Shown here piece after piece: positions 6,341-57,929 of a DNA stretch of 64,000 bases. Each line of letters begins with the position of its first letter. The stretch's first letter is position 1. The notes under the pieces are model-generated. The model saw nothing but the letters and a program-made list of their open reading frames with translations, made no database searches and was not told where the DNA came from. Position numbers and translations under genes: made by a program. Source of the DNA: Nereocystis luetkeana (taxonomy: Eukaryota > Sar > Phaeophyceae > Laminariales > Laminariaceae). The DNA lies in the NCBI GenBank assembly GCA_031213475.1, contig JARUPZ010000006.1, positions 2,757,501-2,821,500 on the forward strand. The letters are read 5' to 3'.

Positions 6341-6349
6341 TACCAGGTA
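6341..6349 (+). repeat. TACCAGGTA scar in MITE copy A
   Basis: Compared with MITE copy C, which reads AAATATATAGGATTTT, copy A has exactly seven extra bases giving AAATATATACCAGGTAGG. Copy B shares the gain (7215-7223). The flanking segments on each side are the same length in A and C. Confidence 0.75.
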
Positions 6350-6373
6350 GGTTTTTATGTATACCATGGGTCC

Positions 6374-6382
6374 TACCAGGTA
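6374..6382 (+). repeat. TACCAGGTA scar in the right TIR of MITE copy A
   Basis: The left arm of the element reads TTAATAGGACC, while the right arm (reverse complement) reads TTAATACCTGGTAGGACC. The two arms differ by one inserted heptamer at a TA. Confidence 0.7.
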
Positions 6383-6401
6383 TTAATTATGGTCCCCCGT
6401 C

Positions 6402-6835
6402 ATGTGTGTGTGTTCTTCACATTAAACAGTTCTTTCTACCCGTCGACATCCAGCACAACCAGTGTCCGTGCCGATTCTTCAGTCCTAGAAGAGATACAAG
6501 TTCTGTGGTCACAAAGCTACGCCACAGAGATACTACGTTGCCACGTGTGCAGTGTGAACTGCAGTGGGCAATGCAAAGCCATGTCATAATACTAGATACG
6601 ACAGGCACGACATACGCAATCTATGAAATAGTGAAACGAAAAGAAACAATCAAAGAGAAAACAAAAACAAGGTAGACAAATCGAAAAAGAAAAAGAAGAA
6701 AAATGAAAGCAAAATCTAAGAGAAACAATCTGTCGTGCCCCCCCCCCCGCAGGCGAGGTGGCCTACACTTGAAAAAGAACGAGCTGGAAAAAAGAAGAAA
6801 TAACAAAAAACAGTACCCCTCTTCTGACCAAAGCA
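6402..6835 (-). mobile_element. LINE A 3' UTR fragment, antisense
   Basis: Reverse complement of about 4290-4702, starting with the GT/CA tail and running through the GTCGACATCCAGCACAACC block, the poly(C) tract at 6739-6748 and the AAAGAACGAGCTGG block. The small ORFs here are antisense readings of a non-coding UTR. Confidence 0.8.
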
Positions 6836-7164
6836 ACCAAAGTAAGTACGTTTCATACGTACACCCAGCTGGCGGCCTTCCTGCATACCACTCTGCCCAT
6901 GAGTATAAGCACTGTTTGTAGATTAATATTCGATCAAAAAGGTCCTTATTTTTAAAGACAGAGTGGTACCGAGAAAATAAATAAATGAAAACACAACCAA
7001 TCGTGAAGCAGTCTTCATTTTTTATTTTTTTCTGTACGCACTTGTCAGGGGCGGTACCGAGTCAGCTCCACGCTTACCAAGTAAGTACCAGGTACGCATT
7101 TGCCAAGCGACACACAGGCATTGAACACATAAAGTGCAGGCTCCCGCCACTATTACTACTATTG
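6836..7164. other. Non-coding spacer between inverted MITE copies
   Basis: No gene or recognised repeat seen except a TACCAGGTA at 7086-7094. It lies inside the inverted arrangement formed by MITE copies A and B. Confidence 0.5.
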
Positions 7165-7277
7165 CGGGGGACCATAGTTAATACCTGGTAGGACCTATGG
7201 TACACACAAAAACCTACCTGGTAAATATTTACCTATTTTCACTAACAATATTTGGTCCTATTTACTATGGTCCCCCG
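7165..7277 (-). mobile_element. ~115-bp MITE, copy B
   Basis: Inverted relative to copy A, with the same ends and both scar heptamers (7182-7190 and 7215-7223). Its right flank, TAATACTAGTGCTACC, continues the LINE A 3' UTR interrupted at copy A's left flank, so A and B frame an insertion or rearrangement within one LINE A 3' UTR. Confidence 0.8.
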
Positions 7278-7735
7278 TAATACTAGTGCTACCAACTGGT
7301 GCAGCTGGTTCGAACGTGGTCTTCCCTTGTCTTCTCTTCTTTCTTGCGCTAACTCTCGTTGATTTTCATATATATTTTTTTCTCTTCCTCTTCCTTTTCT
7401 GATTGATAAGCCGTACTGAAGGAGCCGTGTGGCGTGGTTGGAAGACGAACCTGCCCTGCTCGTTTCGTATTGTCCGACGCCAAGGGGCTGGGCACAGTTG
7501 ACGAACGCAGGGCGGAGACGGCAGTCTGGGTAGCAAGGTACCAGGCGGATTAGCAGGGAGAACCTGGCTATACTACTCGTACCACAAGCTGCTGCCGCCA
7601 CCTGGAAGGTGCTTTGGGCTTTGGTCTGCTTGTTATTTCCCCTTTGTTATTTACTTTGAAAAGTACACCACTGCTTGTAAAAGTAACGAGGAGAAATAAC
7701 AAAAGGGAAAACGCAGAGTAAGAAAGTGTACGCTT
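7278..7735 (+). mobile_element. LINE A 3' UTR fragment with a short inverted end
   Basis: 7278-7660 matches 3820-4240 in sense orientation, without the poly(T) run. After about 7661 the sequence switches to the antisense version of a neighbouring UTR block (CACCACTGCTTGTA onwards, to about 7735). Non-coding. Confidence 0.7.
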
Positions 7736-7839
7736 AACGGGAGGAGGTATTAGAGCTGCCACCCTGGACTGCTACTGGCTCGCTATACATACAGCAGGAG
7801 GAGGACTGGACTTTTTCAAGATCAAGAAACCTGCTGCTA

Positions 7840-8670
7840 CGTACGACGAATGCGCGGTGCTGCCTACTCATCTCAGCGTCAGCCTCGTGCCACCTCATCA
7901 TGAACCGTTCGGCTGCTTCAAGGATCCCCCGGTACCACTTCCCCGCCTTTTTGGCTGCGGTACCACTTCCCCGCCGTTTTGGCTGCAGTGGACCACAACG
8001 CGGTCTAAACTCCAAACACCAACGGGGCAACTTCCGTTGACCCTTCGGTGGCTCGGAACTCCCTAAGGTCTTCGACTATGCATCTATGCCAAGTCTTACA
8101 CTGTCCGCCTGGTCTCGGATTCCCCCCACCAGATATCGTCCCGAACATTACCCGACTGGGTAATCGCTCCTTGCTTTGCCGTGCTACGCCCCTCGCAAAG
8201 AAGAGCCGCCGTTTACGAAAGGTCGTTTCAATGCTCTCGCAACGTGTCATCTTGAGGGCCTTCGCGTACGAGAGGGTGGCATGGTCAGGCCGAAATCGGC
8301 GCTGGAAGCCAACGACTCGCAACAGGACTTGGTGGTGAGCCGTTCGAAGCTTGGGAAAGTGTTCCGTTGTGAGGGTCCACGTTACACACCCGTACAGCAA
8401 GGTCTCAATCACCTCGGCCTTCAGCATTCGGACTTTAAGGCTAAGGGGGGCGGTCGTCCTATCATACAACTCCGGGCCGAACCGTTTGAGGCATGCTCGC
8501 ATGAGACGGATCCGTCCTTCGATTTCGAGCGAGAGCGCACCGTTTTCGTGGATAACGCCTAGGTATAAGAACTGGGTCGTCTGCTTATACCTCTGGCCTG
8601 CCGCGTCGATGACGAGTGGTGGTGCGAGGGTTGTCTGGTCTGGTGTTTGTAGGACTGCGGCCTTGGCGGA
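7840..8670 (-). pseudogene. LINE A reverse-transcriptase C-terminal fragment
   Basis: The minus strand encodes the region from just after the catalytic YADD block to the glycine-rich C terminus of the family A protein, in two overlapping frames (8709-8005 and 8030-7734). Recognisable blocks include [19 protein letters not shown] and RKRRLFFARGVARQS. Compared with the intact copy it has a frameshift near 8010-8030 and a small duplication near 7935-7980, and it lacks endonuclease, palm domain and 3' UTR. It is a dead fragment, part of the rearranged mosaic. Confidence 0.8.
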
Positions 8671-8814
8671 CTGGCAGACATAACTCGCCTCTTCCCCTGC
8701 ACGATACATTCGTGGCTATCTGTCCTCCTCCTTTTCCATCACGAATTATGAAACTATTCAAGAAGTTCGACTTGGACTAGAATTCGGTGGAAAAAACTTC
8801 CTAAAATAATAGAT

Positions 8815-8872
8815 GCCCCCTTGGTGTTTGGAGTTGAGACCGCGTTGTGGTCCGCTGCTGGCAAAAAGGCGG
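8815..8872 (+). mobile_element. 58-bp LINE A coding fragment
   Basis: Matches about 3471-3528 of the intact copy (block encoding FGVETALW). Both flanks diverge abruptly. Confidence 0.6.
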
Positions 8873-9357
8873 TCATTCTCATCGGAGAGTTTTCTTTCAA
8901 TGTTTTTTGACATTTTTTTCGCGCAATTTTTCAAACTTCCATATTTTCCTGGTTTTTCTTTCTTCCAAATATTGGAATGTTAACGAACTTGAAAAATATA
9001 TTGAGTAGGTTTAGCAGTCTGGGAGAAGGGATATTTAGGGATGTTTTTTACTTGAAAAATGTGTAGCGTGGTCTGCACTTCGGAATCTTCGTCCGCATCT
9101 ATCTGAGAAATTTCCTGGTTTGATGCAAACTCGGCGGAGCCGCGTTTATAGCAAGTTTTGGCCCTTTTCGGCTGCGGTTTGGTGTCAGGGTTAGGGTTAG
9201 ACTCCGGGGTTGGGTTGGGTCTTCGCCCGTGCCTTCATCCCAAGCCTCCCTCGGAAAAGCGACCTATCAGGATGTACCACACACACCGTATGTACACGAG
9301 TATCTGGTATTCATACGGGGCATACTACGGTGATGAAGCGGGGGAGAAATGACGAGT
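8873..9357. other. AT-rich non-coding stretch with a telomere-like motif
   Basis: No gene seen. Positions 9187-9200 contain two tandem TTAGGG-type units, followed by degenerate GGGTTGGGTTGGG. Confidence 0.5.
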
Positions 9358-9361
9358 TTTA

Positions 9362-9756
9362 AACAGACAAATCGGAAAAATGGGAACGAAGCCTAAAATG
9401 AGAACCAAGCCGTATCTCCAGAACCATGTGGTGTATCAGAGAACCAAAATGATCCTGCGAAACCCCTTGGCCAGCCCTGTGAGAGGAGCTCGTCAGAACG
9501 GTCAAGCTCCATCTCGTGCCTTCGGGTGGGCGCAAAAAGCGATATACGCTGGCTCTATTGTGATTTCTCTAGATGCTGGCTACCGCGGCGATGCCGAGGA
9601 CTTCCAGCCTGAGCGACAGCTCATTTGAAGGCTGCTGTACAGCTCCACAGGACTGTGAACTTTTTTTCTTGGAGTTGTACACAATTGGTTTGCTTTCTAA
9701 AAAAAAACGTCCGTTCGCATTTTTTGTTTCGTTCCCATTTTTCCGTTTTGTCTGTT
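9362..9756 (-). mobile_element. 395-bp MITE, copy 2
   Basis: Exactly the length of copy 1 (5006-5400), in reverse orientation and nearly identical over its whole length. It is flanked by TTTA at 9358-9361 and 9757-9760. The 82-residue ORF inside is a shadow reading that is also open in copy 1 by similarity, with no known domain. Confidence 0.85.
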
Positions 9757-9760
9757 TTTA

Positions 9761-10217: not shown

Positions 10218-10218
10218 A

Positions 10219-10503
10219 CGCACAAAATTAGTCCGTCAACTATAGGAAATAAGAACGGACAACCTAGGCGATGGGAATGTTTGCAAAACTGTTATATGAT
10301 GTGATCGTGTTCTTAGTATAATCCCACGTTTTATTTTTTTATACTATGTTATAGATCCCGCGCACATAATTAGTCCGTCAATTTGAAGAAATAGGAACGG
10401 ACAACCCAGCGATGGGAATGTTTGCAAAACTGTCATATGAGGTGAGCGTGTTATTTCTATAATCCCACGTTCCATCTTGCATACCAGGTACTATGTTATG
10501 GGG
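10219..10503 (+). repeat. Tandem duplication of a ~140-bp unit
   Basis: Unit 1 is 10219-10359 and unit 2 is 10361-10503. Both share ATTAGTCCGTCAA, GAACGGACAACC and CGATGGGAATGTTTGCAAAA blocks at the same spacing. Near their ends unit 2 has TACCAGGTACTATG where unit 1 has TACTATG. Confidence 0.8.
10482..10490 (+). repeat. TACCAGGTA scar in tandem unit 2
   Basis: The paralogous unit 1 has only TA at this point (ATACTATGTTAT near 10341). The flanks align on both sides, leaving a 7-nt gain. Confidence 0.75.
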
Positions 10504-13457: not shown

Positions 13458-13479
13458 CGCCAACGGTGCAGTACGTACT

Positions 13480-13640: not shown

Positions 13641-13645
13641 ATCCA

Positions 13646-15740: not shown

Positions 15741-15773
15741 CGTTGAGAGCGCCTTGCAGCGTGGGTAGGCACA

Positions 15774-17530: not shown

Positions 17531-18179
17531 TTTCGTGGAGCATTATTCGACACCACAAAAACTGGGGGGTGATGTTAATGTCAGGTCCCCTGTACCAACA
17601 TGCCAAACATATATATATGGGGAAACCCCTTGGTCACACGTCACACGTTACCAACTTCAAGGCGTCCGTCCCCTCAAAAGGGACTCCTGTTGTTGTTGTT
17701 GTTTCGTTTTGTTTTTTGTTCTCACATTAACTCACAATTCAATGCAGTTCGTGGTCGCAGGACAGGCTCCAAAATCTCTGGAGTGGAAGAAATACCTCAA
17801 GTAAAAACAGAGGCAAAAACAAAAAACAAGCATACGCACTCCACCACTGCGGACACCAGGGAAGCAAAAAGGAGACTATTAATAGCAGACAAAAACCTAA
17901 AAAACGAAGATGAAGCTAAGCAAAAAAAAACAAACCAAAACAAAAACAGACGCAGATAGCAAAACGCAAAAAAAAAGGCAAAACGGACCATACTAACAAA
18001 GTCACAAAGAGGTACAAACGGGAATGAAAGAAAAATGAAAACAAAGAAGGGACAAAAAAGCGATAATCACGGGTTGGGGGGGGGGGGAAATACGAAAGGC
18101 AGGCACTGGAGCATACAGACACGCAAAGTTGCCCAGATGGCACCATGCTAGTTACTTGGATCCCAAAGAAGGTAGTGCA

Positions 18180-23258: not shown

Positions 23259-26200
23259 TCAGAAGTTGTTGATGATGTCCAGTAGCTGCTGGAAACGCGG
23301 CTTGGCAAAATGCTTGGTCCCTATGTCGGCGGGGTTGTCGTTGGTGGGGATGTAGTGCGTCGAAATCTTCCCCTCGGTGACCAGCTCGCGGATGTAGAAG
23401 TAGCGGAGAGCAATGTGCTTGGTGCGAGAGCTGAACGATCGGTTCCCGAGCGCATGCAGAGTTGCAGTGTTGTCGCAGTGAAGTGGCACTTGAACGAACT
23501 GCTCCCCAAACCCAAGCTCCGTCATCATGTTCATGCAGAACACGGCTTCTTTCATCGCGAGTGCCGATGCAACCAGCTCAGCCTCCATGGTGGACATGGC
23601 AGTCAGGCTTTGAAGGCCCGACTTGAAGCTAATTGGTGCTCTGGCCAACATCATGATGTAACACGACGTCGACTTGCCGTTGTCCGGGTTGTTAGCCCAG
23701 TTAGCGTCCGAAAAGGCTGTGAGCTTAAAACCTCCCTTCTTGTACACTATGGTGAAGCTGGTGGACCCCGCCAGGTACCTCAGAATGTGCTTGGCCGCGA
23801 CCATGTGCACCTTCGACGGTTTTGACATAGCACGAGAGAGCTGGCTCGAGCTGTACATTATGTCATACCTGAGGACAGAAGACAGGTACATGACCGTGCC
23901 GGCGATCGCTTGGTACCGTTGCGTCTCCTCGGCGTTGAGCAGTGTCTCCTCCGGCTGCTTAGTGGAGAGCTCGGGTCCGTAACCAGGGGTCAGCGTTGGC
24001 TTGCAGTTCGCGAAGCCGAACCGCTCCAAGGCGGACTTGGTGTATTCCTCCTGGTCTATTGTGAGTGTCTTCTCCGCCCGGTTCCGGGTGACCTGTAGCC
24101 CAAGTACACGCGACACATCGCCCATGTCGGTCATCTTGAACCGGTCCATTAGTTGTGTCTTGATCTTCTCGATCACTTCGATGTTACCACCAATCACGAG
24201 TAGATCGTCCACGTAAAGTGTGAGGATGATGGTGACATCGTTGTGCCTGTAAATGTATACGCACGTGTCAGATTTCAGCGGGACGAAACCGATGATCTTG
24301 AGGACGGGGTCAATGGTGTGAAACCAGTTCCCGGGGCTTTGTGCTAGCCCGTAGAGGCTTTTCTCCAGCCTCATGACTAGAGGACCTCCATCCTTGTCCT
24401 TGGTCTCATATCCAGGGGGTTGCGCGACGAACACTTCCTCTTCAATGTCCGCATACAGGAAAGCTGTCTTGACATCAAGCTGAATGACTTCCCAGTCCAT
24501 TTCCACAGCTATAGCAAGCACCATCCGAACACTCTGCAGCCTGCAAACCGGAGCGAACGTGTTGCCGCTGTCTAGCCCATGTACTTGGTTCCAGACTTGC
24601 GCGACCACCCGCGCCTTGTAGGAATTATCGGCCTTACGCTTCAGAACCCACTTTGAGTTGATGATCTTCTGTCCCGGAGGAATAGTAGAGCGCGGAACGA
24701 GCTTGTAGACCTTGAGTTCATGCAGGCTGTTCATCTCCTTATCCGCAGCAGCGCGCCAAAATGAAGCTTCCGGTGTTTTCATGGCGTCGTAGAACGATTT
24801 AGGGATTCCCGGCTGCATAGTCTGCACAGCATATGCGTACTCTGCGAACCGAGGCATGTCGTCCTTGTGGGCGACGTCCTGATACTCCCCCATCGTGGAG
24901 TATGCGAAATTTAGGCGTCGGAGTTTGCTGACAGTCCTGGCGTTAGGTGTCATAGCAGTAGCTCTGGTAACAGCCGGTGTAATCGCGCGGCTTCCGCGCG
25001 ACGCAGACCCACCTCGCGAAGAACCACCACGCGAAGCAGATCCGGAAAGCAAAGATCCCGATGGCGAAGCACCCGATGGCGAAGCACCCGATGGCGAAAC
25101 ACCGGATGGCGAAGCACCGGATGGCGAAGCACCGGATGGCGGAGGACCCTGCTCGGCAGGGCTTACTCCCCCAGGCGGAATAGATGGAGTAGTGGCTGCA
25201 GTATCAATGCCAATGTCGCGGTTGGTGACATCATGGATTTGCCCTATAAGTGTAGTTACTAACGGATCTGCAGCGTCTATGTTAGGAGAAGGCCCATGGA
25301 TGTCTGTGTTAGACGTGTGGTCGCGCACATCCCTTACCAGGTCGTCTCCTTCGTCATACGTAAACTCTCCGTCGTCAAAGCCACCGACCTCCAGGCGAGG
25401 CAGTGCTGAGGGCGTCTCAATGAAGACGACGTTTCGACTCTCCCTCACACGCTTCGTCGCCGGGTTGTAGATCCGGTAAGACTTGCTGTCCGTGCTGTAC
25501 CCAACCAGGCGTCCTTCCCAAGCACGCGACTCCAATTTCTTGGTGTGGGTTTCTACATGCACAAACGACCTAGCCCCGATCACCCGAAGGTTCCCGAGGT
25601 AAGCATCCTTGCCGTAGAGTGCCTTGTAAGGCGTACCGTTGCTCAACGCCGCATGTGGGACCCGGTTGCTTAGGTAGACTGCCGCCTGCATCAACTCCCC
25701 CCAGAGAAAACTCGGGAGATCCGAATCAGTAAGTAGACAGCGTACGATGCTAGCAAGCGTCCGACCTGCCCGCTCGTTCGCGCTGATCTGCCGTGGGGTG
25801 TTGGTAGACGCAACCTCCAACTGGATTCCAATGTCGACACAGTACTGGCGGAACTCCGAACTCGTAAACTCTGTACCTTTGTCCCCCTTCAGCCGGACCA
25901 AGCGCTCTTTGGACCGAATCACAACGGCCTTGTTGAACAGCTCGAGGGAGTCAACGGTGTTTGTCTTGCTCTTGATGAGGAATATCTCCTTCCACTTCGT
26001 CAGTTGGTCAACAAACTTGGTGACGAAAGCGTAACCGCCCAGTGCTAGAGGGCTGATAGGCCCCATGGTGTCTACGGTGACAAGCTCAAAAGGTCGCTCC
26101 ACGTCATATAATGCTCGCTTCGGGTGGGGTTGTTGCTCACTTTTGCCGAAGGGGCAGACGTCGCACGGCGTCAGGTCACCTTTGTAGTCAACGCCGCTGC

Positions 26201-29766: not shown

Positions 29767-30111
29767 AATATATACCTGGTACGGAGTATTGAAGCTTAGG
29801 CCCTACTAAGAAACACCCCTATAGTAGTTGATACACTCAATTTTCAAATATTTTTGCAAGCTGCGCAATACGCTTGTGTACAACTATTTACTCTTAGTTT
29901 TGTTGGGCACGTTTCATTACTTTTACTTTCTAGCCTACTAACTCGTAGGAGGTTTTACCCTCAACGAGCTTCTGGGCAAGCCGTGGTCACAGGTGTCTAC
30001 CCTTTTCCCCCCCGGTATGTGACTTGATTGTTTATCGCGCAAAAGGTTCAGCATTCCCATTGCTCGTCGATTTTCATCGATTGTAGCTAACTCACGCTCT
30101 CGCGCTTTCCG
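29767..30111. other. AT-rich non-coding spacer
   Basis: No gene or shared repeat seen apart from the TACCTGGTA at 29773-29781. Confidence 0.45.
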
Positions 30112-30242: not shown

Positions 30243-30540
30243 ACTCTGTTCTATACGTATTTCATTTTTTTTGTTTTCGTGTTTCGTTCATAGTAAGTAG
30301 TATGTGGGAGTTGTGTACCTGGTATAATTTATGAGAACATGTATTCATAGTACCCCGTAGTTTTATAGGAATTTTAGTAATTGCTAGTGAAGTTTAGTAC
30401 AACTCGATTTTAATTTATTAATTTCGTGATTCTTGGTGGGAATTGATGGGAATAGACGAACAGACCATCACGAATAAATGCATCTCGCGGGGGAAGAAGA
30501 GGCACGTTGTGTCCGCCGAAGGCAGCCAAAAATTCGCGGG
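30243..30540. other. AT-rich non-coding spacer
   Basis: Contains TACCTGGTATAATT at 30316, a flank that recurs at 57180. No gene seen. Confidence 0.45.
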
Positions 30541-31185: not shown

Positions 31186-31376
31186 TGTGTGTGTTCTTCA
31201 CATTGAACCGTTCTTTCTACCCGTCGACATCCAGCGCACCCAGTGTCCGTCCTGATTCTTCAATCCTAGAAGAGATACAAGTTCTGTGGTCACAAAGCTA
31301 CGCCACAGATATACCACGTTGCCACGTACCAGGTATGCAGTAGGCACAGCAGTGGGCAATGCAATGCCATGTCATC
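31186..31376 (-). mobile_element. LINE A 3' terminus fragment
   Basis: Antisense match to about 4510-4700, starting at the GT-rich tail. Interrupted by family C at 31377 and resumed at 31749. Contains a TACCAGGTA gained relative to the other copies. Confidence 0.8.
31327..31335 (+). repeat. TACCAGGTA scar inside a LINE A 3' UTR
   Basis: Other copies read GCCACGTGTGCAGT (6540, 13793); here GCCACGTACCAGGTATGCAG. The segments after the insertion keep the same length, so exactly seven bases were gained. Confidence 0.75.
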
Positions 31377-32452: not shown

Positions 32453-33054
32453 TAGGCCTAATCTTCTAAGACGAGCGAATCGAGCCGTAAGTCGGACTGG
32501 GAAATCGAGCGTAGCGAGGTATTAAGACGGCCGCAGGCCGAAGATTTTTCGACTAAGTCGCACGAATTTCAATCGTCTTAATCCCTATTTTGCGTCTTAG
32601 CGCGTCTTGGATACGTCTTAGCGCGTCTTAGCGCGTCTTAGACTCGTCTTAGCGAGCCTTAGATTCGTCTTGGCACGTCTTAGGTTCGTCTTGGCACGTC
32701 TTTGGTTCGTATATAGGCACGTCTAAGCTCTTGGAAGTACCAAAAGAAGAATTATGTCGAAAACTAACAGTTAGCTACTTTAACGAGGCACGGGTACAGC
32801 AATACAGCAACCACACAGCAACGTAGAGCGCCAGGAAATACGTCAATATTCAAAATATCATCAAGCTACCGGTACCTGATAGTGCGATTATTACGTATAA
32901 TGATGGACGAACAGTATTATTACGTACGTGGTACTCCTACGTAGTATAGTTCCTTGTTTGTTGGCATTTTTTTGACGTCACGCACATCAGTACATAATTG
33001 AATACCAGGTATCTATATATATGTGTATTTGTTTGTACATTCATTCGTACATAC

Positions 33055-33303: not shown

Positions 33304-34401
33304 TTTATTGCGTCGTTTGTTTCTACGAGGACGAATATCATATCGTCAGCAGCCGTGGATACCAACAAACTCAGATATTGGTATAATTTTTCACGTATTA
33401 TTAGTGTTAATATTAATAGTATTATTATTCATATTTAATACTCCGTAGCAACCTACGAAGCCACCAACTTAAAACAGAAAGTCTTAATTAAGAGAAAACA
33501 GCGGTATTTGTTCGGAAAGATTTCGTTCAAAGAACGACACGTTACCGGTGGTAGTGATGCATCCTCCGCGGTGTAAGCATACCAACGGATTTTTCGCAAG
33601 CCACTACCTGGTATTAATATTATAACAATAATAACTGCCCCGCCCACCGAACACAGAAAGAAAACAGTTACTGTTGTTGTCCTATGTTGGGCGTCCCAAA
33701 TAAGGCATTATGTCACCTATATAGTTTTATACTGCTGTACCACGGTATATAGCAATAATCGCAAAAAAACAGAGAAAACGAACAGCAGGAGAGCAGTCGC
33801 CATAAAGTATACCATCAGGATGCAATTCTGTTTTTGCAATACCAAGTACCAGTATATATTACGACATTAACAACCAACACAACTTGAAACAAAAAACAGA
33901 GGTGGTAGAGGTAGCAGTATTCCTCAGGTAGTACGTCGAAATAAATTGGAGAGGCTATATATATATACCCAACTGCCAAGTGGGGAGAGAGGATACAGAT
34001 CATTTTTTTATTTTATTTTAAAAAAACATAATAATGCCATCCTCGAAAATACGGAGAACCGGGTTCGATGTCCCCGGTGCCAGGGAAGAGTGCATGGAGG
34101 CCCGAAAAAAGAAGGTTCGAAAGAAGCAAGTTGATTCAGTCGATTCATCTGCCGTTCTCGCTGTGTTTCCACCTATTGCCACAGCTCGATGTGGTCGTTC
34201 GTGTCGACCCCCTGAGACGCCTCGACCGGCGCCTGGTGCATTCTAAGACGAATCTAAGACGTGCTAAGACGAATCTAAACGTGCCAAGACGAATGTAAGA
34301 CGTGCCAAGACGCGATATAGCGAGTAAGACGGGCCTCTCTCTGAGAAACGGATTAAGACGTATTTTAAGACACGTCTTAGAAGATTGGGCTTGGACTGCG
34401 G

Positions 34402-34438: not shown

Positions 34439-34770
34439 CATACCAGCCAGCTGTTCTCCCTTCCAAGCCGCATAAAATGAAACTAAACAACTCAACTTGA
34501 AAATACCTGGTATATTTGTTCTTTTTTTTTTCAACCCAGAAATATTGACAATATGAGATGTCATAACACCAACCAAGCTAGCGGGAATACTTGTGACACG
34601 AAACCGTGTAGATACGGTCGTGAGCTGTGCGAAACCGTGCAGAAGCCGTCATGACCTGTGTTAATGTGCCAATACGTGACCCTATTGCACCGTTCTGCGG
34701 CCGATGATACGTCGGTTGTACTACGGTTTCAAGTTAACCGCGCCGATAGATAACCGATCCCACGGTTTTT
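34439..34770. other. Non-coding spacer
   Basis: Includes TACCTGGTA at 34504-34512 and several copies of GAAACCGTG near 34600-34650. No gene seen. Confidence 0.45.
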
Positions 34771-36885: not shown

Positions 36886-39698
36886 TGTTGTTGTTGTTGT
36901 TGTTGTTCTCACATTAACTCACAATTCAATGCAGTCCGTGGTCGCAGGACAGGCTCCAATAACTCTGGAGTGGAAGAAATACCTCAAGTAAAAACAGAGG
37001 CAAAAAAAAACAAAAAACAGGCATACGCACTCCACCACTGCGGACACCAGGGAAGCAAAAAGGAGACTATTAATAGCAGACAAAAACCTAAAAAAAGAAG
37101 ATGAAGCTAAGCAAAACAAAAACAAAAACAAAACTAAAACAGACGCAGATAGCAAAACGCGAAAAAAAGGCAAGGCAAAACGGACCATACTAACAAAGAC
37201 ACAAAGAGGTACAAACGGGAATGAAAGAAAAATGAAAACAAAGAAGGGACAAAAAAGCGATAATCACGGGCGGGGGGGAAAGAAAATACCAAAGGCAGGC
37301 ACTGGAGCATACAGACACGCAAAGTTGCCCAGATGGCACCATGCTAGTTACTTGGGTCCCAAAGAAAGGAGTGCATCATGACGATGATGGCCATAACCAG
37401 GCTTCAGTCTGTTGGGCAGACCGCCTCCCCTCCCCCCCCCCGCCATTCCCCCTCGTCCCCCTTTCGCCCCCCCCCTCTTCCCTGCCATTCTGCACACTCG
37501 CGTTGGCGTCAACGGCTGTGGTCGTGGTCGCAGCTATTCTATGCCGTTCTGCCGATGCCTCCTTCTCATCTGTATGCCATTTCCGCATGAAGGCCTCCGC
37601 CCCTTCCTCGACCCGTTGGAACCATCTGCCGGCTTTCTGTGCTGTCTCGCGCCACCCTTCGAGCTTGATGCCGAACTCCTTGAGGTCCTCCTCAAGGTAC
37701 CTCATCCAGTCCCACTCCTGTCCTCCGGAGTAACCCTTACCCCCAACCATCTCCCCAAACATCACCCTCCTCGGCAGACGCTCCTCTCCCATTCGTGTCA
37801 CAAAGCCCGCAAACAAGAGCCTACGTCTGCGTACCGTCGTCTCAACGCTTTCAGATGTTGTCCTGAGAAGCGCGCTAGCATAGGATAGAATGTGGTCTTC
37901 GCGCTTTCGTTTTCGCCACCCGATGCATCGGAGGAGCATCTTGTGGTGGACCTCCCGTAGCCTACCGTAATCAGTCTTGCTCGGGCTCCAAGTAACGCAA
38001 CCGTAGAGCAACGTTTCGATCACCTCGGCTCTCAGCATTCGCACCTTCAGGCGTAGGCGCACACCCGGGCGGTCATAAATTTCCATCTTATACCGTCCGA
38101 AGCATGCCCATGCCCTCTGGAGTCGACGCGTTACCTCGACACTTCTGCCCGTCCAATCTGCGCTGATAGCCCCGCCCAGATACACAAACTCGGTCGTTTG
38201 TTTGTACACTTGGCCGGCGGCGGTGACGGTGAACGGCACGTTCCCCCCATCTTTCGTTTGCAGACACATTATCTCCGTCTTGGCCTCCGAGACCGTCAGG
38301 CCGAAAGCGGCACATGCAGACACGATCACCGTCATCATCCTCTCCAGGCCGTTGGGTGATCTCGATACTATGCCTGCATCGTCGGCATAGAGCATAGCCC
38401 ACAGTGTCTGGGCCTCTTTATCATTCCCCTGTCCGTCGGCGTGCCCGACCCGTGCCTTCCCCCTCTTCTTTTTCTTCTTCTCCTGCTTTTGTTGGAGTTG
38501 CACCAAGCTGTCCGTGATGGCTTTATCAGCAGCGAAACGTTTCTCCGCCACACGCAGCACCGCTGTAAAAAACATGTTGAACAACAATGGCGCGAGCACA
38601 CACCCTTGCCGTAGGCCCTGTTTCACGTCGAACATATCTGAGCACTCGCCGTCATCCAGCCGCACGCATGCTCGCATGCCGTCGTGGAATTGGCGGATAA
38701 CGGTGAGCATTCTAGGTGGCACCCCAAAGCGAGCCAAGACAGCCCACAGGAGGGTTCGGTCGACGGAGTCGTAGGCTTTGGTGAGGTCGACAAAGCACAT
38801 GAAGAGCGGAGTGTCCTTCTTCCTTGCCAATTCCTGCAAGCGTCGCACCACGAACATCATGTCGACCGTCGATCGTTCGGGCCTAAAGCCACACTGCTCC
38901 TCCGGCAGGATGCCTTCCCGTTCGCAATAGTCGCTGAGTCGGCGCGCGATGACTTTGAGGAGCACTTTGCCGGCATGCGCGACTAGGGAAATGCCACGAT
39001 AGTTACCACACTCCGTCCTGTCTTTCTTCTTGTGCAGCACCTTAATCGTTGCATCCTTCCATTGCTGCGGCACGACCCCTCCCCTCCACACAGCGACGAT
39101 AATCTCGTAGAAGCTTCCCAAGGTGTCCGAGTCTCCCTCGTCGGCCAGGACCTTCAGAAGTTCAGCTGGGAGACCATCAGGCCCAACCGCCTTGCGGTTC
39201 GCCATCGCCCTGATCGCGTCTTCCACCTCGTATCTAGACGGGACGTCGTCCAGCGGACTGCACGAGGGCCAGACCTTGAGCTCATCGACGATAGTCGGAT
39301 CGAGGGTCGATGACCTTGCGTTTAGCAGCTTATGGAACCACCTTACCCATCGTTCCCGGATGAGGCCTACGTCTCGTAGTAATCTACCTTCCTCGTCCCT
39401 GATGTACTGCGAATGGAAGTCCTCTTTCCTTCCACATTCATCCCCTTAAGGTGCTTGTAGAACCCAAACTGATCACCTTCTTGGATACGCCTTTCGAGTT
39501 GACGGACGTATTCCTCGAAGAACTTCTGCACTCCGTCCGTCCTCGCACGTTTGAGCTGTTTAGTGGCAATCTTCACAGCTTTTCGCAGATTTTTGTCTTC
39601 CGGGTTAGCACGTAGTTGCGTCCTCGCATTTTCCTTCTCCTGCCATCGTGAGTGCACCTCTGCTTTTACCTCTTCGGGCGTACACCAGCCCAGCGGCC
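36886..39698 (-). mobile_element. LINE family B, copy 2, 5' truncated
   Basis: GTT tail at 36886-36907, 3' UTR to about 37375, coding to 39698. Similarity to copy 1 stops abruptly at 39698 (after CCAGCCCAGCGGCCC), the signature of incomplete reverse transcription. Closely similar to copy 1 throughout. Confidence 0.88.
37376..39418 (-). CDS. LINE B reverse transcriptase and C-terminal region, long open frame
   Basis: Some 616 residues from VEDAIRAM onward, with the frame open further upstream to a one-base deletion at about 39418. All reverse transcriptase blocks are intact: [43 protein letters not shown] and [11 protein letters not shown]. The C-terminal blocks [11 protein letters not shown] and [15 protein letters not shown] and the glycine-rich tail follow. 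No ATG begins the open frame; upstream sequence in another frame (39759-39367) encodes the preceding linker. The endonuclease domain is missing, so this copy is not autonomous, but its polymerase is the best-preserved example of the family here. Confidence 0.8.
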
Positions 39699-42918: not shown

Positions 42919-44531
42919 TAGTAATTGTCAGTCCCCGGGGCTGTGAGATTCACCGCGACGGGCGTTTACGTGATGTTGACATTTTATGGGTTTAATCAGC
43001 AAGAAATATCCTGCCGCAAGAGCTAAGCTGTTGTTGAACTCTGGTCTGTGGGAGTCGGTGTGGGTGATTTGAACAAAAAATGCGAAACGCAACGCCCTAA
43101 ACCCGGGAATGGCTCTTGCACGTCGCCGTCGTAGTCAATTCATCACATTTCGCTTACGTGGTCGTGACTGTAAGTTCCTAACCTAGACAACAGTCTAGCT
43201 TCGCCGGAAAGAGACTGGTTTCGACGACAAAAAGAGGAGGGAGACGGTAGACATAGCGTCGACTAGCGAGCCAAACGGATTGGGCGCATCCTGCGCGATG
43301 ATTTTGGTTCTTCGGATCGGAACCCCCAACTGCCAAGAACATTTTTTAACCAAAACGGGGAACAAGGGGCACATACTACTGGAAGCGAGTCGCAACGAGA
43401 GCACGTACAAACAGCGGGCTGGTTGCGCTTAGGCGGCGAGGTGGCCATACGCAAGGTCAGTAAGATGGCACATAAAGGCCGACAAACTGCACGCACACAA
43501 TCACGAGAGCAACACTCATTATTGTTAATATTATTTTGCGATGCAGTGGTATATACCAGTGATACAACTGGTGGTCCGGTGTCTGTTGCGCGCATTTCCT
43601 TGCACAAAAGCACTCTTAGTGTGACTTGCACCGGACGAATCCACAAGACACAAATGTTTAGATAACTCGACAGCTGTTAAACAAACATAACTCAGGTCGA
43701 ATTTTTAGCCACAGCCAACATGAAGGCCTATTCAGCGTCAAAGACTTCACGTCATCAACAGCTGTTGGAAGTAGAAGAAAAAGTCAAACATTGTAGATCG
43801 TTGGGCATCTAGGAGTATGGCCACCTGGAAAAGGCCGCGGACTTGAACGCTTTGCGGTGCCGCGGCCTCAAACTCGTGTGAAAGCGGTAGATGTGCCACA
43901 TGTTGAAGGTCCCCACGCAGGAAAATTTTGAAAGTGGTGACGAGTCTTCCCCCAGTCGAGTCATTTGCACCCGATGATATCGACGTAGCCCGTAACAACA
44001 ACGCCGAGCGTAACACAAAAAGGATCATAATATCGCAGTTCAACCCCCCTTGTTTCCTCGGGCGATGATTTATCGTTACTTTTTCGTCCTCCACCGCCCC
44101 CCGCATGTGTCGGCCCCGCGGTAGAATGCGAGGTTGTCGGCTCCCTCCCCGTGGTTGACAAACACATAGGGCCGCTACGGGCGCACAAATCAATGGTGGA
44201 TGCGACACAGAATGCAAGGAAATGTGTGTCAACCACTAAACCGTCGCACAATAAAAAAGTGGGTGGATGTGGAGGTTGGAGAGTCAAGATAAGGTGAACC
44301 AACCAGTAAAACGCGACAACAGTTCCTATTAAATGTCTGCCCTCACCCAAGCCAATTGGTCTCCGCAGGCATGCAGAACAGTCGTGTCATGTCACAGCTT
44401 TACTGAATTGGTTGAAACCCCTAGACGTGGTGAAGTAGAGCATGTGTTGCGGTAATACTGAAATACCTTGTACCTGGTAGTATTCACGAATCCGGTGTGT
44501 ATATGTGGTGTGTTCCGGATACGATACAAAT
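42919..44531. other. Non-coding stretch
   Basis: Overlapping ORFs on the minus strand (for example 43646-43263 and 44232-43747) contain no recognisable domain and have no splice-supported model. One TACCTGGTA at 44471-44479. Confidence 0.4.
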
Positions 44532-44585
44532 TGTACGAGTACCAGGTATATACTGTACGAGTACCTGGTATATAGTGCTCTAATT
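44532..44585 (+). repeat. Short tandem pair carrying two opposite scars
   Basis: TGTACGAGTACCAGGTATATA (from 44532) is followed by TGTACGAGTACCTGGTATATA (from 44564). The units are identical except for the central base of the scar. Confidence 0.7.
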
Positions 44586-47500: not shown

Positions 47501-47964
47501 GCAATGCATATAACAATAACGTTGACGAATACCTGGTACAGGGTGTCTTCAACAGTAAGCTGCATTTCTTGAATTTCGTCCGAAGAACTCGTTCCCAGTC
47601 AAGGGTTACCGCAGAACTGGGACTCACATCGCAGAGTCAATACACAACGCTTCGAACGGGATCAGTTTTTCAGTGAGATCACTGCAATGCTAGGCCACCC
47701 TCGAACGCATGAAAGCTGGACCTTTACCGTACTTGATACGGGAACCGGGCACTGTTACGTAGTTCGCCCGCTTACTTTTGTGCGCAAACGCACGATCTTT
47801 GACGTGCTATACGGCGCCTGTAATCATTGACTCAGGACCTTATAGCTTACTCGCGTATGCTCTCAAAAACAAAGTTGTTGGTGGGTACTTGTTTGGCCCT
47901 ATTTTCAACGGATCACACGCAACGTACTCAGGCAACACTCTGATCGCTCGCCTTTAACTGCCCT
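44586..47964. other. Long stretch without a supported gene
   Basis: Contains a C-rich region (45410-45720), a cluster of CCATGGCATG-type words with two 18-bp palindromes (45897-45914 and 46104-46121), a poly(C) run near 46340 and a TACCTGGTA at 47530-47538. ORFs up to about 160 codons (for example 47565-47086 on the minus strand) show no family features. Upstream exons of the gene at 48 kb could lie at its right end but I cannot define them. Confidence 0.4.
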
Positions 47965-54100: not shown

Positions 54101-55131
54101 TTGAATAAAATCTCCCACTAGTACTACTTCTCCTTGCCTCTTATACTTCTGTATATCTACTGCTACTTCTCCAAACTTCCTCTGTATATCTTTTTTCGTA
54201 TTCTTCGACTCTGGGGGCATATAGATGTTTCCTAAGAAGTAATATTTCGCTCCCCGCTCCCCTGGTATCTTGATCCAGATGCTTTCGTCGAATTTAGTGT
54301 ATTTGATCACCTCAATTATGTCACACAGGTATTCTTTGACTAGGAACGCCCACGCCCCCCGACCCCCTATTCTTGCTTTTTATTGTGTCTCTTCCTCTTC
54401 TTCCCTATCCATGCGTACTCTCCAACTTTGCATCCTATCTCCCCCCCCTCTTTCTCCCATGACTCTTGAGTTCCCACTATGTCTAGGTCACGCTCAGTTA
54501 CTTGTTCCACAATTTCGATCCTTTTTCGTTCATCCATGGCGAACCCACATACGTTCCATGATCCTATTATCAGCCTCTTTTTCGTTGCGCTATCCGCTCT
54601 AGTCTTACCTGTTCCTTCTCCGTTGTCGCTACGAGTATTTCTGTCATCTCTTCTTTGAGCATTCTTTCCATTTCCATTTCCGTTTCTGTTTTTTTCTTCT
54701 TGTTCTACGCCCCTATGTTTCTCCGCCATTCCCTTAGGGCCACTTGCTGTTTCCTGCCTTCCCTTACCTTCGTTCACCCTAGAGGTACGTCTGAGTTTCG
54801 CTATTCCAATAGCTATACATACTCTTCGTCCCAGTCTTCTAACCCATGCCGACACTTTCTCTGTCTCTATCCTCTGCCACTCCATTCTCGCTTTCGGCTT
54901 TAGCGTGACTCGAAAGTGTTCTCCCTCTCGTTCTACGTTTCCTATTGCAAAGCAGTACAGTCTTACCTCTTCGCACTTCCTCTTGAACTCAATCCTCGTC
55001 ATGTCGCTAGTAACTCCAAATCTCAGCACTATTAGTACTTTACCCTGCCAGTCGTTCTTGCTCCAATCACCCTGCCTCACCGTCTTTCTCCTAATCTCTT
55101 CCGAGAAAATCTCCAGATTCTTTGTGCTCAT
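51100..55131 (-). pseudogene. LINE family D, decayed full-length-type copy
   Basis: The minus strand encodes, in broken frames, a non-LTR retrotransposon unlike A and B. 55131-54367 (254 residues) starts with an ATG and ends inside an endonuclease domain (IGSWNVCG, GTQESWE). 54310-54077 has VVLVGDF and 54023-53754 has GTTDHCLIW, both endonuclease motifs. 53560-53102 is a lysine-rich linker. 52810-52421 and 52370-51966 carry reverse transcriptase (FFLDVQKAYDTVWR and FADDFVG). 51932-51543 and 51510-51268 give the C-terminal region with a CPCG..H..EC cysteine-histidine motif, and similarity continues in another frame to about 51130. At least six frame breaks or stops make it dead. Confidence 0.8.
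54367..55131 (-). CDS. LINE D N-terminal ORF fragment with start of endonuclease
   Basis: 254 residues. About residues 1-115 are of unknown fold, 115-185 are charged and glycine/asparagine-rich, and then IIGSWNVCG and DIVGTQESW mark the beginning of an AP-endonuclease-like domain that is cut by a stop before the catalytic aspartate and histidine. It is part of the pseudogene above and unlikely to be functional. Confidence 0.6.
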   Translation of the reverse strand: MSTKNLEIFSEEIRRKTVRQGDWSKNDWQGKVLIVLRFGVTSDMTRIEFKRKCEEVRLYCFAIGNVEREGEHFRVTLKPKARMEWQRIETEKVSAWVRRLGRRVCIAIGIAKLRRTSRVNEGKGRQETASGPKGMAEKHRGVEQEEKNRNGNGNGKNAQRRDDRNTRSDNGEGTGKTRADSATKKRLIIGSWNVCGFAMDERKRIEIVEQVTERDLDIVGTQESWEKEGGEIGCKVGEYAWIGKKRKRHNKKQE

Positions 55132-55992
55132 AATGGTAGTGGGAAACGTTCAAGTTACTGGGACTTCCCAATCCTAGTACTCGTTGGGGGTGTGGTGTCT
55201 TTCAGTTATTTTGCCGGCGCACCACACTAAATAGTGTCTCCAACACGGGCTCGTAGCCTGGAGCCAAGTTCAACACCCTTAACACATGTACCCTACGTTT
55301 GCGTCAGGCGATCTGCATGGTAACCATCCTGGCGTCCCACGATCGTATCTTCTATCTTCTTGCCCCGCTGCTGTACTGGTTACTTTCCTCCAGGAAGGTC
55401 ATGTTTACCATTCAAGGTTCAAGGACGGCTTGCATAACCTAAAATCTTACTCACACATTGGGATGCCCCGTACGTCTCCTTCTCCGTCATATGTACGTTT
55501 CACCATGGGTAACTACCCCACTAATGCTCCCGAGTAGACCTTCACTGCCGAAAGCTTGGCCAACAATTCCCCCACACTTTGTACCGGCTTCTATCCTTCA
55601 AGATATCAAGACATCTACGTACCGCTTGGTGCTCCTTCTCTTTGGTCATGTGGTCGGTCAAATGCAAGGTGTTTGTTTCATGAGTATAATCGGTCTTGAC
55701 TTAATGTCATGCATCATCCACCCCTCCCCTTCATTTAGCGCTTGGTATGTGCACCAAATGTCGGGGATTTTAGGAATAATGTCAGACCAGACTTCCACCG
55801 CCCAATGGAAATCGGTAAAGTTTTACGGGTATCTTACCACGAGACCCAACCTTCATGTGAATTGAACATGTTGGGGTGACCATGCTGTATCTATGTGTGT
55901 GCATGTGAGGCGATCCACCTTCATGCTAGGTTTTTGGTCTATTTTTTTGTGCCTTTACTACCAGTATTATGGTATACGGGAGAAACTTTAAA
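55132..55992. other. Non-coding stretch
   Basis: A 135-codon ORF at 55458-55865 has no recognisable domain. 55132-55300 may be the LINE D 5' UTR. Confidence 0.4.
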
Positions 55993-56290
55993 CTGTTTTT
56001 ATTCATGTCTATGTCTGATTTGGGTTCGGATATGGGGACAAAAAAATGGTTAGTTAAATTGTTTCAATTTCTAGATCTGGTTTGTGGTTTGGTATGGAAA
56101 AACAAACAAACAAACAAACGAACAAACAATCAAACAAACAAGCGGTTAGGTGAGTAGTTTCATATATACTTCAAAATTTGGGTTTCAGTATCGGGAAAAA
56201 ACATGGTTAGTTCAGTAGTTTCATGCCTGAATCCGGTTTGTGTTATTTTATGGTGAAAAAAAACTGGTCAGTTCAACTGTTTCATTGTTA
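55993..56290. repeat. Minisatellite, 61-68 bp unit, about four copies, with an AAAC run
   Basis: Units contain GTTTCA.., GGTTTG.GTT and AAAAAA.TGGTTAGTTCA blocks. The second unit is expanded by an AAAC microsatellite (56099-56142). Confidence 0.7.
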
Positions 56291-56725
56291 TGGTTCGGTT
56301 GACCGTTTCAGGAGTGATGATGACATAGAGGCGTTTTCATATCGTAGCTCCGTTCCGGACGGAAGGTTTCATCCCCCTTCCGTCTCACTCAGTTCCCGCG
56401 ACCATCACCACGGTCACGGAACAAGCAATCACTTACCATCTAGCCATCTCCAGTTGGAGCCTCGTCACAGAAGAACCACAAGCTCGCCCTACTCTCCTGG
56501 AGACCTAGGAGCGCACCTCTCGACTCGGTCAGACTCAAGCTCTGCTCTGTCACTGAGGTTCATCATTCATGTCTCGTCTTTATGTGCCCCTTTTGGGTTA
56601 TGCACCTCCGAGTGGTAACCTGGGGTCCCCAGCTGCCACTCCTACCAACTATTGCAGAACCCTACATGTGTTGCCTTGTGACAACGACTTAAGACCTCAG
56701 CCCAGGCTGCCAGCATTCCGTTTCA
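56289..56725 (+). repeat. Dispersed repeat E, copy 2
   Basis: Matches 10829-11261. Its left end abuts the minisatellite and repeat E' is absent here. Confidence 0.75.
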
Positions 56726-57929
56726 TGGTGTTCAGTCCCTGTACATGCTGCGCGCTTACTGCACGGGTTTGCATTTCCCGTGCCGGAACGAGCGGCGGCC
56801 TTCGCGCCTCCGACCTGTTCCTTTCGATTTTATTTTTTATCTTGAGTAACTTTTTTGGTAGCTGCGGGTGGCAGCGTTTTATTGTTTTTTTTTTTCGTGT
56901 GTTGCACCTCGCCTTTCCTTTGCCTCTACGGGGGGTACACGCGCTGATAGCGCTCTTCCTGCAAGCAACTCTGACCCACCGCTGACCACATGCAACCATG
57001 GACCACGTGGAAACTCAACCCCACCGGTACCTACTACGGGGTAGGCTGTATCACGGATACAGCAGCAGCAGTACTGCGCGTCCCGCGCGTACGATAACAC
57101 CCATGACTCTGAACGGGTGCTCATTATTTAGGGGGTCTGTACTCAATTAATTATTTTATTTCGGTGGGGAATGCCTGAGTACCTGGTATAATTCATGATG
57201 CATGACACAACCAGGAAGCGACTTGCTCCCTGGCGCGTGTCCACATCGTTGATTCTCACTCTGGTACCCTGAGTTTGCGTGCTTGGCTCGACGTGTATTG
57301 AACAAATGGCGCAGGTGGGAGCTGGCAGCGCACTTGTCAAACCCCCATCACATTTTCCACACAGCAGCCAAAATAAAGAATGAATGAAAAATAAGCGTAA
57401 GCCTGACGATGACGCGGGGTTTGAGAGCGCGAGTGTCCAAGTGCGCTCGCTGAGACTCTCAGGCTCGTGTTCCACAAGCCAGCTGCTGTCACATACGTCG
57501 TTACTGCCGCGGCTTGCCGTCACGTGCTTGTGTGCTGCCCTTACCACGTGCGTGTATGTTGCCGCTGCCGTCGCCGCTTCGCCACGTTTCGTTGCTGCTG
57601 TTATCTGTGAAATAAAAATGCCTCACGGCTAACGCAACATACTAATTTAAGGCACGTCCTTTTCCATCCCCCTTTCTTAGTTATTGTTCTGGCAAGTTAG
57701 AGGTCGATAAGCATCCCTGCAAACCTTGCAAGCCACGTTTTTCATTTTCATGTGTCTTGGTAATAAGGGTATAACTGTGTGAGTCAGATCATTTTTAATA
57801 GACTACAGCAGTAGGCAAAATTACGTACGTACGAGTATACACTGTGGTATTGCATGTCGACCTCTCTATCTCTCTTCAGTAGGTTCACGGTACCGACCTA
57901 CCGCTGTTGTACGGCGATGTTACTGCTGT
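56726..57929. other. Non-coding stretch
   Basis: Short ORFs only. TACCTGGTATAATTCATGA at 57180 shares flanks with 30316. No gene seen. Confidence 0.4.

What the first reader, a model, noticed from the sequence alone, without database searches (positions are those of the whole stretch)
6341..57188. Recurrent TACCWGGTA scars: precise TA -> TA-CCWGG-TA insertions scattered through the window
The exact 9-mer TACCAGGTA or its complement starts at 6341, 6374, 7086, 7182, 7215, 10482, 29773, 30316, 31327, 33003, 33605, 34504, 44471, 44540, 44572, 47530 and 57180: 17 sites, where chance would give about 0.5 in 64 kb on both strands. In four independent alignments of paralogous repeats (10482; 31327; 6341 versus MITE copy C; left versus right TIR of the same MITE) the motif is a clean 7-nt gain at a TA. 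In the 31327 case the TA also needs one substitution. Known Tc1/mariner elements duplicate TA on insertion and on excision leave TA-(few terminal bases)-TA footprints whose core is palindromic except for the middle base. CCWGG fits a 5-nt version. I infer an abundant TA-targeting transposon that excises often, or an undescribed micro-insertion process.
Basis: partly seen in the sequence, partly recalled or inferred. Interest (0 to 1): 0.92.

Follow-up and report, generated by a model that had tools for sequence, protein, structure and literature searches.

The report
Kelp-like genome riddled with transposon scars
A 7-letter insertion (TA becoming TA-CCWGG-TA) is scattered about every 2.5 thousand bases through a brown-alga genome, most likely because a TA-seeking mobile element has jumped in and cleanly out again very many times, although the element itself was not found.

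Summary
In detail: 17 TACCWGGTA in the window (shuffles mean 0.29; one reported coordinate is off by 10). The 465-Mb genome (brown alga; psaB nearest giant kelp) has 182,395 copies against 1,744 of the reversed control. Paralogs show a gain at TA, not a loss: 11 of 12 scars with a spanning paralog have a relative with the bare TA. Flanks form a palindromic target site, WANNNNR-TA-YNNNNTW; held-out flanks recognise scars (AUC 0.856; control 0.534). Trimmed or extended cores (CCGG, CCAG, CCAGGG) share that target signature, as imprecise repair would leave. Best reading: excision footprints of a TA-specific cut-and-paste element with 5-nt self-complementary ends, accumulated over a long time. A second word, TATTAATA (93,112 copies), also looks like a TA-TTAA-TA scar. 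The parent was not found: no CCWGG-ended element in about 0.3 Mb held, no DDE_3 match in the genome, 28 DDE_1 matches, none linked to such ends. TA footprints are a known kind of thing; the 5-nt core, near-uniform repair and this number are unusual. The middle base is not random in tandem doubles, which simple mismatch repair does not explain.

The parts
6341..6349 (.). TACCAGGTA scar in a ~110-bp MITE copy
   Evidence: 17 spanning paralogs = 13 bare TA, 2 another dinucleotide, 2 filled
6374..6382 (.). TACCAGGTA scar in the same MITE copy, next to its terminal inverted repeat
   Evidence: 15 spanning paralogs = 9 bare TA, 5 another dinucleotide, 1 filled
7086..7094 (.). TACCAGGTA scar
   Evidence: no spanning paralog
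7182..7190 (.). TACCTGGTA scar in the second, inverted MITE copy; equivalent position to 6374
   Evidence: 18 spanning paralogs = 11 bare TA, 6 another dinucleotide, 1 filled
7215..7223 (.). TACCTGGTA scar in the second MITE copy; equivalent position to 6341
   Evidence: 17 spanning paralogs = 11 bare TA, 3 another dinucleotide, 1 indel, 2 filled
10482..10490 (.). TACCAGGTA scar in one of two tandem copies
   Evidence: neighbour copy 10246-10352 has bare TA, clean 7-nt gap
29773..29781 (.). TACCTGGTA scar
   Evidence: no spanning paralog
30316..30324 (.). TACCTGGTA scar
   Evidence: no spanning paralog
31327..31335 (.). TACCAGGTA scar in a dispersed repeat
   Evidence: 9 spanning paralogs = 3 bare TA, 4 another dinucleotide, 2 indel
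33003..33011 (.). TACCAGGTA scar
   Evidence: no spanning paralog
33605..33613 (.). TACCTGGTA scar sharing its right TA with a TATTAATA at 33612
34504..34512 (.). TACCTGGTA scar
   Evidence: no spanning paralog
44471..44479 (.). TACCTGGTA scar
   Evidence: no spanning paralog
44540..44548 (.). TACCAGGTA scar inside a 22-bp tandem duplication
44562..44570 (.).
47530..47538 (.). TACCTGGTA scar
   Evidence: no spanning paralog
57180..57188 (.). TACCTGGTA scar
   Evidence: no spanning paralog
17877..17884 (.). TATTAATA, candidate second scar type (TA-TTAA-TA); 37068-37075 is the paralogous copy
   Evidence: the class as a whole is supported, this site was not shown empty elsewhere
33612..33619 (.). 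TATTAATA adjoining a CCWGG scar

Best explanation
Each TACCWGGTA is, in the main, the repaired excision site of a TA-specific cut-and-paste DNA transposon. Inferred steps: (1) a transposase inserts an element at a TA inside a palindromic site (WANNNNR-TA-YNNNNTW), duplicating TA; (2) on excision it cuts 5 nt inside the element on one strand at each end, leaving flanks TA-CCAGG and CCTGG-TA with self-complementary (or nearly so) 5-nt overhangs; (3) the overhangs anneal and are ligated, giving TA-CCWGG-TA. Occasional loss of the middle base or of an end base gives CCGG and CCAG; an added base gives CCAGGG. Scars are permanent and accumulate, so a few active elements can leave far more scars than copies. 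Shown: the gain at TA, the target site, the dominance of one core, trimmed variants with the same target signature, the number, and partial decay. Inferred: the element, its transposase, the overhang and the repair steps.
For: 182,395 sites against 1,744 reversed controls. Gain at a bare TA: 11 of 12 scars with a spanning paralog (of 106 queried); 133 pairs = 92 bare TA, 30 another dinucleotide, 8 filled, 3 indel (a few of these pairs are weak alignments). Stricter scan: CCWGG 9 of 13 spanned, against 1 among 490 occurrences of other 5-nt cores that had any spanned member. Of 12 seven-nt gains readable as TA to TA-X-TA, 8 are CCWGG. Palindromic target logo, sites oriented by the middle base: W at 7 .83/.81, A (T on the right) at 6 .55/.55, R/Y next to TA .85/.84; half-site matches of 3: left 2.23, right 2.20, against 1.38 for 14,065 TA. 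Held-out AUC 0.856 (66 test flanks counted on both strands), against 0.534 for 342 other TA-N5-TA with G/C-rich cores. Filled share .0005 at 2 matching features to .1415 (15 of 106) at 6 of 6 (features chosen on the same sample). Share with at least 4 of 6 features: CCWGG .83 of 94, CCGG .73 of 11, CCAG/CTGG .61 of 28, CCAGGG .62 of 8; all TA .26 of 14,065; CCSGG .23 of 13. Doubles (15,917) need no second mechanism: a scar's own TAs fit the target, 14 doubles expected in the sample, 4 seen. TA footprints of 0-4 bp are established for Tc1/mariner and pogo elements (PMC7913693, PMC9976928; passages).
Against: No parent element: none with CCWGG ends in about 316 kb; no shared sequence beyond the 9-mer except in one MITE family and weak matches; DDE_3 absent; Transposase_1 silent, with silent control; PF13359 did not complete. 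5 nt exceeds the 2-4 bp cited for Tc1/mariner. In rice only 8 of 94 excisions were perfect (PMC4423477, passages), so such uniform repair is unusual. The middle base is not random in doubles: A..T 4,522, T..A 1,856, same base 9,539 of 15,917. CCSGG sites in the sample (13) lack the target signature although some mutated scars were expected among them. In the stricter scan TAA (2 of 10), ATAA (2 of 4) and an 8-mer repeated in L023 (7 of 8) also show bare-TA relatives, so a bare-TA relative alone is not proof.
Confidence: 0.76

Rival explanations
1. A direct micro-insertion process: a transposase-like or nuclease/ligase activity adds CCWGG plus a copied TA at TA sites without a longer element ever being there.
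For: No element seen; the product is nearly uniform; target choice is transposase-like.
Against: I know of no activity that supplies an untemplated palindromic 5-mer (recalled knowledge); trimmed and extended variants with the same target signature look like repair of cut ends; a second TA-TA word behaves alike.
Confidence: 0.11
2. Programmed or life-cycle-linked removal: germline elements bounded by TA-CCWGG are excised in the sequenced tissue, leaving scars, somewhat like ciliate internal eliminated sequences.
For: Scars abound while no element was seen in the sequence held.
Against: Many scars appear mutated (102 one-mismatch sites beside 94 exact ones in the sample, chance matches included, 49 of the 102 with at least 4 target features; 10,882 TACCSGGTA against 1,899 control), so they are old and inherited; doubles need repeated rounds. 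No germline/soma comparison was possible here.
Confidence: 0.06
3. A functional or selected motif (protein-binding site, or a modification site such as CCWGG) spread or maintained for its own sake.
For: Very high copy number of one palindrome.
Against: Copies arise as exact 7-nt gains at TA in repeats and MITEs, with a TA target preference and trimmed variants; selection for a binding site would more readily act through substitutions.
Confidence: 0.03
4. Ordinary dispersed-repeat content: the 9-mer is part of an abundant repeat family or microsatellite.
For: Several scars lie in one MITE family; triples exist (e.g. C1:2158057-2158079).
Against: Flanks of 216 oriented sites give 33 pairs at 15 of 24 or better against 7.8 (largest 13) for random RTAY flanks; the 7 pairs above 17 of 24 are all MITE copies. 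In the 264-kb sample 99 runs are single and 4 double.
Confidence: 0.03

Closest known systems
Excision footprints of Tc1/mariner elements (Sleeping Beauty, ZB)
   Same: TA target, A/T-rich palindromic target preference, footprint between two TAs
   Different: Footprints 2-4 bp in general and 0-3 bp for ZB (PMC7913693, passages); here a 5-nt core, very uniform, in 182,395 copies; parent and transposase not found. That the Sleeping Beauty core is CWG is recalled, not from a call
pogo-superfamily element Passer (DDE_1 type)
   Same: Element of the pogo superfamily leaving short footprints; DDE_1 matches exist in this genome (28, a lower bound)
   Different: Passer footprints 0-4 bp (PMC9976928, passages); the one DDE_1-associated end seen here begins TA-CAGTGGGGGG, not CCWGG
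Mariner-Tc1 families of the brown alga Ectocarpus (TcMar-1, TcMar-2 and MITEs)
   Same: Brown-alga Mariner-Tc1 elements, almost 12,000 copies, most of them MITEs (PMC12477816, section 5 read)
   Different: That paper's main text has no occurrence of 'footprint' or 'excision'; termini were not compared
Paramecium internal eliminated sequences
   Same: TA-bounded excision on a genome scale
   Different: Excision leaves a single TA with no added core (recalled; the paper was seen only in a search listing)

Membership tests
Tc1/mariner (IS630-Tc1-mariner) excision footprint | Insertion at TA with TA duplication | tested here: met
   Bare TA in paralogs, two TAs in filled sites
Tc1/mariner (IS630-Tc1-mariner) excision footprint | Palindromic target context around TA | tested here: met
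Tc1/mariner (IS630-Tc1-mariner) excision footprint | Footprint core of 2-4 nt | tested here: not met
   Main core 5 nt; minor 4-nt cores CCGG and CCAG
Tc1/mariner (IS630-Tc1-mariner) excision footprint | Parent element with TA-flanked inverted repeats beginning with the footprint bases | tested here: inconclusive
   None in about 316 kb held, under 0.1% of the genome; elements longer than a locus not testable
Tc1/mariner (IS630-Tc1-mariner) excision footprint | DDE/D transposase of this superfamily in the genome | tested here: inconclusive
   DDE_3 none, Transposase_1 none with silent control, DDE_1 28 matches; none linked to CCWGG ends
PIF/Harbinger | 3-bp TNA or ANT target duplication | tested here: not met
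   Only TA is duplicated; outer neighbours differ, R on the left and Y on the right. The transposase family PF13359 was not searched
piggyBac / precise excision | Excision restores the original site | tested here: not met
   7 nt remain
Ciliate-type IES elimination | One TA left after excision | tested here: not met
   Two TAs plus CCWGG remain
Ciliate-type IES elimination | Developmentally programmed, somatic | not testable with these tools
   No germline/soma data

The most novel reading that the evidence does not exclude
Cohesive-ended transposons as genome-wide odometers: in this lineage at least two TA-specific elements evolved self-complementary terminal overhangs (CCWGG, with A at one end and its partner T at the other, and TTAA). 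Host ligation then reseals almost every exit with a uniform scar, and scars outnumber resident copies by a large factor. The middle base would then record element orientation, which could explain why it is not random in tandem doubles (A..T 4,522, T..A 1,856, same 9,539 of 15,917). With scars at 15 of 106 fully matching target sites in the sample, the genome would carry a countable, datable record of past jumps.
Probability: 0.3. Interest if true: 0.82.

Novelty: new variant of a known kind. Interest (0 to 1): 0.66.

Why it matters
Excision is normally hard to see in genomes. A 5-nt footprint in 182,395 exact copies, with a measurable target preference, would make lifetime numbers of insertions and excisions countable, give a datable marker of TA-transposon activity in brown algae, and show that a scar load can build up even when the element is rare or gone. 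Each scar adds 7 bp and would shift the frame if it fell in an exon.

Tried and rejected
Element hunting. (a) TA-flanked inverted repeats starting CCWGG (up to one mismatch) in about 316 kb (L001-L036 and window, some loci overlapping): of the 25 best shown, the six at 17-19 of 19 are MITE or LINE copies in the window, the others (12-14 of 19) are scar clusters or weak matches. (b) Insertions between collinear paralog pieces: none of those printed is bounded by CCWGG, by eye. (c) Target-signature sites with TACCWGG not followed by TA: 25 listed, no shared downstream sequence seen by eye. (d) DDE_1 loci: C2, C809 and C1378 are identical duplicate contigs, not mobile copies; L029 and L031 share an end beginning TA-CAGTGGGGGG; no CCWGG-ended inverted repeat seen. 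(e) A MITE with TTAACCC ends as parent of the TTAA scar: of 15 ends listed only the two in L022 are visibly flanked by TA, dropped.

Other scar cores. TACWGTA (84 sites) and TACCGTA/TACGGTA (60) are above dinucleotide or Markov expectation but lack the target signature (.15 and .20 against .26 for all TA); TACWGTA may in part come from repeat ends resembling CAGTAGTGG. TAGGWCCTA (8 sites) has the signature but appears to be part of the MITE (contexts). CGAC (6 places) did not recur in the stricter scan.

Organelle control is weak: 0 scars against 5.6 expected in about 7.7 kb of readable plastid-contig sequence, much of it psaA/psaB coding sequence. A middle-base effect in the flanks could not be judged with 94 sites.

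Literature: (listings) showed no paper describing TACCWGGTA as a scar; two searches listed only 20 of 119 and 15 of 117 papers, and the library holds only open-licence PMC papers. psaB was used only to place the organism.
Full report
Observation. TACCWGGTA occurs 17 times in the window, against a shuffle mean of 0.29 (largest 2 of 100 shuffles). All listed coordinates are right except 44572, which is 44562. The 465,085,209-base genome holding the window has 182,395 places (with W the motif is its own reverse complement, so the forward count counts each place once), against 1,744 for the motif read backwards. The S-centred form TACCSGGTA has 10,882 (control 1,899), so the centre is A or T in about 17 of 18 cases. 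The window is below the genome's mean density. The assembly contains duplicate contigs, so these counts include some duplicates.

Organism. The assembly holds plastid contigs (63 PsaA_PsaB matches). Its 734-aa psaB scores 1,723.7 bits against PDB 9ygv_B and 1,619.6 against the next chain. [quoted passage not shown] I take the source to be a brown alga near kelps; the species is not determined, and the tool states that the genome has no relatives held.

Sample. Most statistics use 264,000 bases: the window plus twenty 10-kb stretches at 1.0 Mb of contigs C1-C20, holding 94 scars. Among all TA-N5-TA words, CCTGG (55) and CCAGG (39) stand far above the next, TATATAATA with 11. Paralog tests use 320,870 bases (further loci added; overlapping or duplicate loci L005, L006, L008, L038, L039 left out).

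Direction of change. For each of 106 scars with enough flank I joined the flanks at one TA and searched for paralogs. Twelve had a spanning paralog; 11 of the 12 had one with the bare TA. Of 133 spanning pairs, 92 show TA, 30 another dinucleotide, 8 are filled and 3 have another indel; some pairs are weak alignments. The twelfth scar (L016:8093) has GA or CA in all three relatives. A stricter scan of every TA-X-TA with X of 2-10 nt gives 9 of 13 for CCWGG and 4 of 13 for TTAA, and 1 among 490 occurrences of other 5-nt cores with any spanned member. TAA (2 of 10), ATAA (2 of 4) and an 8-mer repeated in L023 (7 of 8) also pass there; the last looks like repeat-unit variation. Several CCWGG cases sit at two equivalent sites of one MITE family, so the 11 scars stand for about seven distinct places, nine with 10482 and L009:5266. 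The tandem pair at 10246/10482 shows the clean gap directly.

Target site. With sites oriented by the middle base, so that symmetry is not forced, both sides show the same preference: W at 7, A (T on the right) at 6, R (Y) next to TA. Left and right half-site scores are 2.23 and 2.20 of 3, against 1.38 for all TA. A matrix trained on half the loci separates scars from TA sites in the other half with AUC 0.856 (66 flanks, each scar counted on both strands); 342 other TA-N5-TA with G/C-rich cores give 0.534. The filled share by number of matching features (0 to 6) is 0.0006.0005.0029.0122.0373.1415, the last being 15 of 106. These features were chosen on the same sample, so this gradient is partly circular; the held-out AUC is not.

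Variant cores. At least 4 of 6 target features are present in .83 of 94 CCWGG.73 of 11 CCGG.61 of 28 CCAG/CTGG and .62 of 8 CCAGGG sites, against .26 of 14,065 TA sites; CCSGG (.23 of 13), CWG (.15 of 84) and CCG/CGG (.20 of 60) do not show it. Trimmed and extended cores with the same target signature are what imprecise joining of the same cut ends should leave. The variant numbers are small.

Clusters and doubles. Among the first 100 places on C1, 8 of 99 neighbour distances are exactly 7 bp (Poisson 0.3) and 19 are within 200 bp (7.0); in the sample, against random RTAY sites, 20 are within 200 bp (mean 8.5, largest 18 of 1,000 draws). Genome-wide there are 15,917 doubles. A scar's own TAs match the target, so 14 doubles would be expected in the sample if they were ordinary targets; 4 are seen. 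Nested targeting therefore suffices for doubles; local hopping may add to the wider clustering, though uneven gene density could too. In doubles the middle bases are A..T 4,522, T..A 1,856, equal 9,539 by subtraction. Independent random repair predicts 25, 25 and 50%; observed are 28.4, 11.7 and 59.9%. Either the base records element orientation (ends truly complementary), or repair depends on context, or some doubles are unit duplications. I cannot decide.

Age. Each scar shows TACCAGGTA on exactly one strand: 94 exact sites. Beside them stand 102 one-mismatch sites outside the centre, chance matches included, 49 with at least 4 target features. The genome-wide excess of S-centred sites is about 5% of the W-centred ones. 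The scars are therefore of mixed age and many are inherited.

Second scar. TATTAATA occurs 93,112 times against 10,689 for the reversed word. In the sample it occurs 56 times, mostly in unrelated contexts with a preferred flank C-TA-G. The filled share rises from .0002 to .048 with target match, then is 0 of 11 at the full match (features again chosen on the sample). Four of 13 spanned sites have a bare-TA paralog in the majority. It looks like a 4-nt footprint of another TA element; its parent is also unknown.

Parent. DDE_3 has no match in the genome while 3 of 14 control genomes ring. Transposase_1 has none, but its controls are silent too. DDE_1 has 28. PF13359 was asked for and not answered. 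No CCWGG-ended element was found in about 316 kb, nor any shared sequence beyond the 9-mer outside the MITE family and weak matches. Zero in that amount bounds short, intact copies at roughly 5,000 genome-wide (three over the sampled fraction, an inference); rare or giant elements are not excluded.

Mechanism and literature. Tc1/mariner footprints are 2-4 bp, ZB 0-3 (PMC7913693), Passer 0-4 (PMC9976928); in rice 8 of 94 excisions were perfect (PMC4423477); these are passages read. Ectocarpus has 17 Mariner-Tc1 families with almost 12,000 copies (PMC12477816, section 5 read; its main text has no 'footprint' or 'excision'). The kelp-like genome fits the same kind of process with a longer, more uniform core; I found no report of a comparable count in the listings seen. 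Because a scar is permanent and an element is not, scars can outnumber elements; that is inference. That self-complementary ends are why these two scars dominate is a hypothesis.

Noticed in passing
window 17877, 33411, 33612, 37068; genome-wide: TATTAATA is about 9 times its reversed control (93,112 against 10,689) and behaves like a second TA-TTAA-TA scar with its own target context.
   Followed up: partly
genome-wide doubles, e.g. G000:C1:20016-20031: Middle bases in TACCWGGTACCWGGTA are strongly non-random: A..T 28.4%, T..A 11.7%, equal 59.9% of 15,917.
   Followed up: partly
window 44532-44574: A 22-bp tandem duplication carries the scar in both units, with A in one and T in the other, one of only two differences between the units.
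   Followed up: no
window ~6276-6397 and ~7164-7281; L016:9058-9180: A ~110-bp palindromic MITE (ends TTACGGGGGACCATAG, TA-flanked); the 40 genome copies scored are 97-100% identical to the query (the best of 2,350 first-look candidates), so part of the family is young.
   Followed up: partly
L029:37, L031:1221: Two DDE_1 (pogo-type) loci share a segment that begins TA-CAGTGGGGGGCCC; one holds a 1.3-kb insertion with a 6-bp repeat at the junction.
   Followed up: partly
L012:3400-5200: An array of palindromic units built on GCTGCGCAGCTAGCTGCC with nested inverted repeats.
   Followed up: no
window 58093-58880 and 61885-62385: 281-bp tandem repeats (2.8 copies) and a 64-bp-based array near the right end of the window.
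   Followed up: no
window 23259-28016 (-), 57-3797 (+): A Copia-type polyprotein frame of 1,585 aa and a LINE-type endonuclease/RT frame of 1,246 aa, both uninterrupted; neither carries a TACCWGGTA.
   Followed up: no
G000 small contigs (C62, C85, C809, C1378 and others): The assembly keeps many plastid contigs (63 PsaA_PsaB matches) and duplicate contigs identical to parts of large ones, so genome-wide counts include some duplicates.
   Followed up: partly
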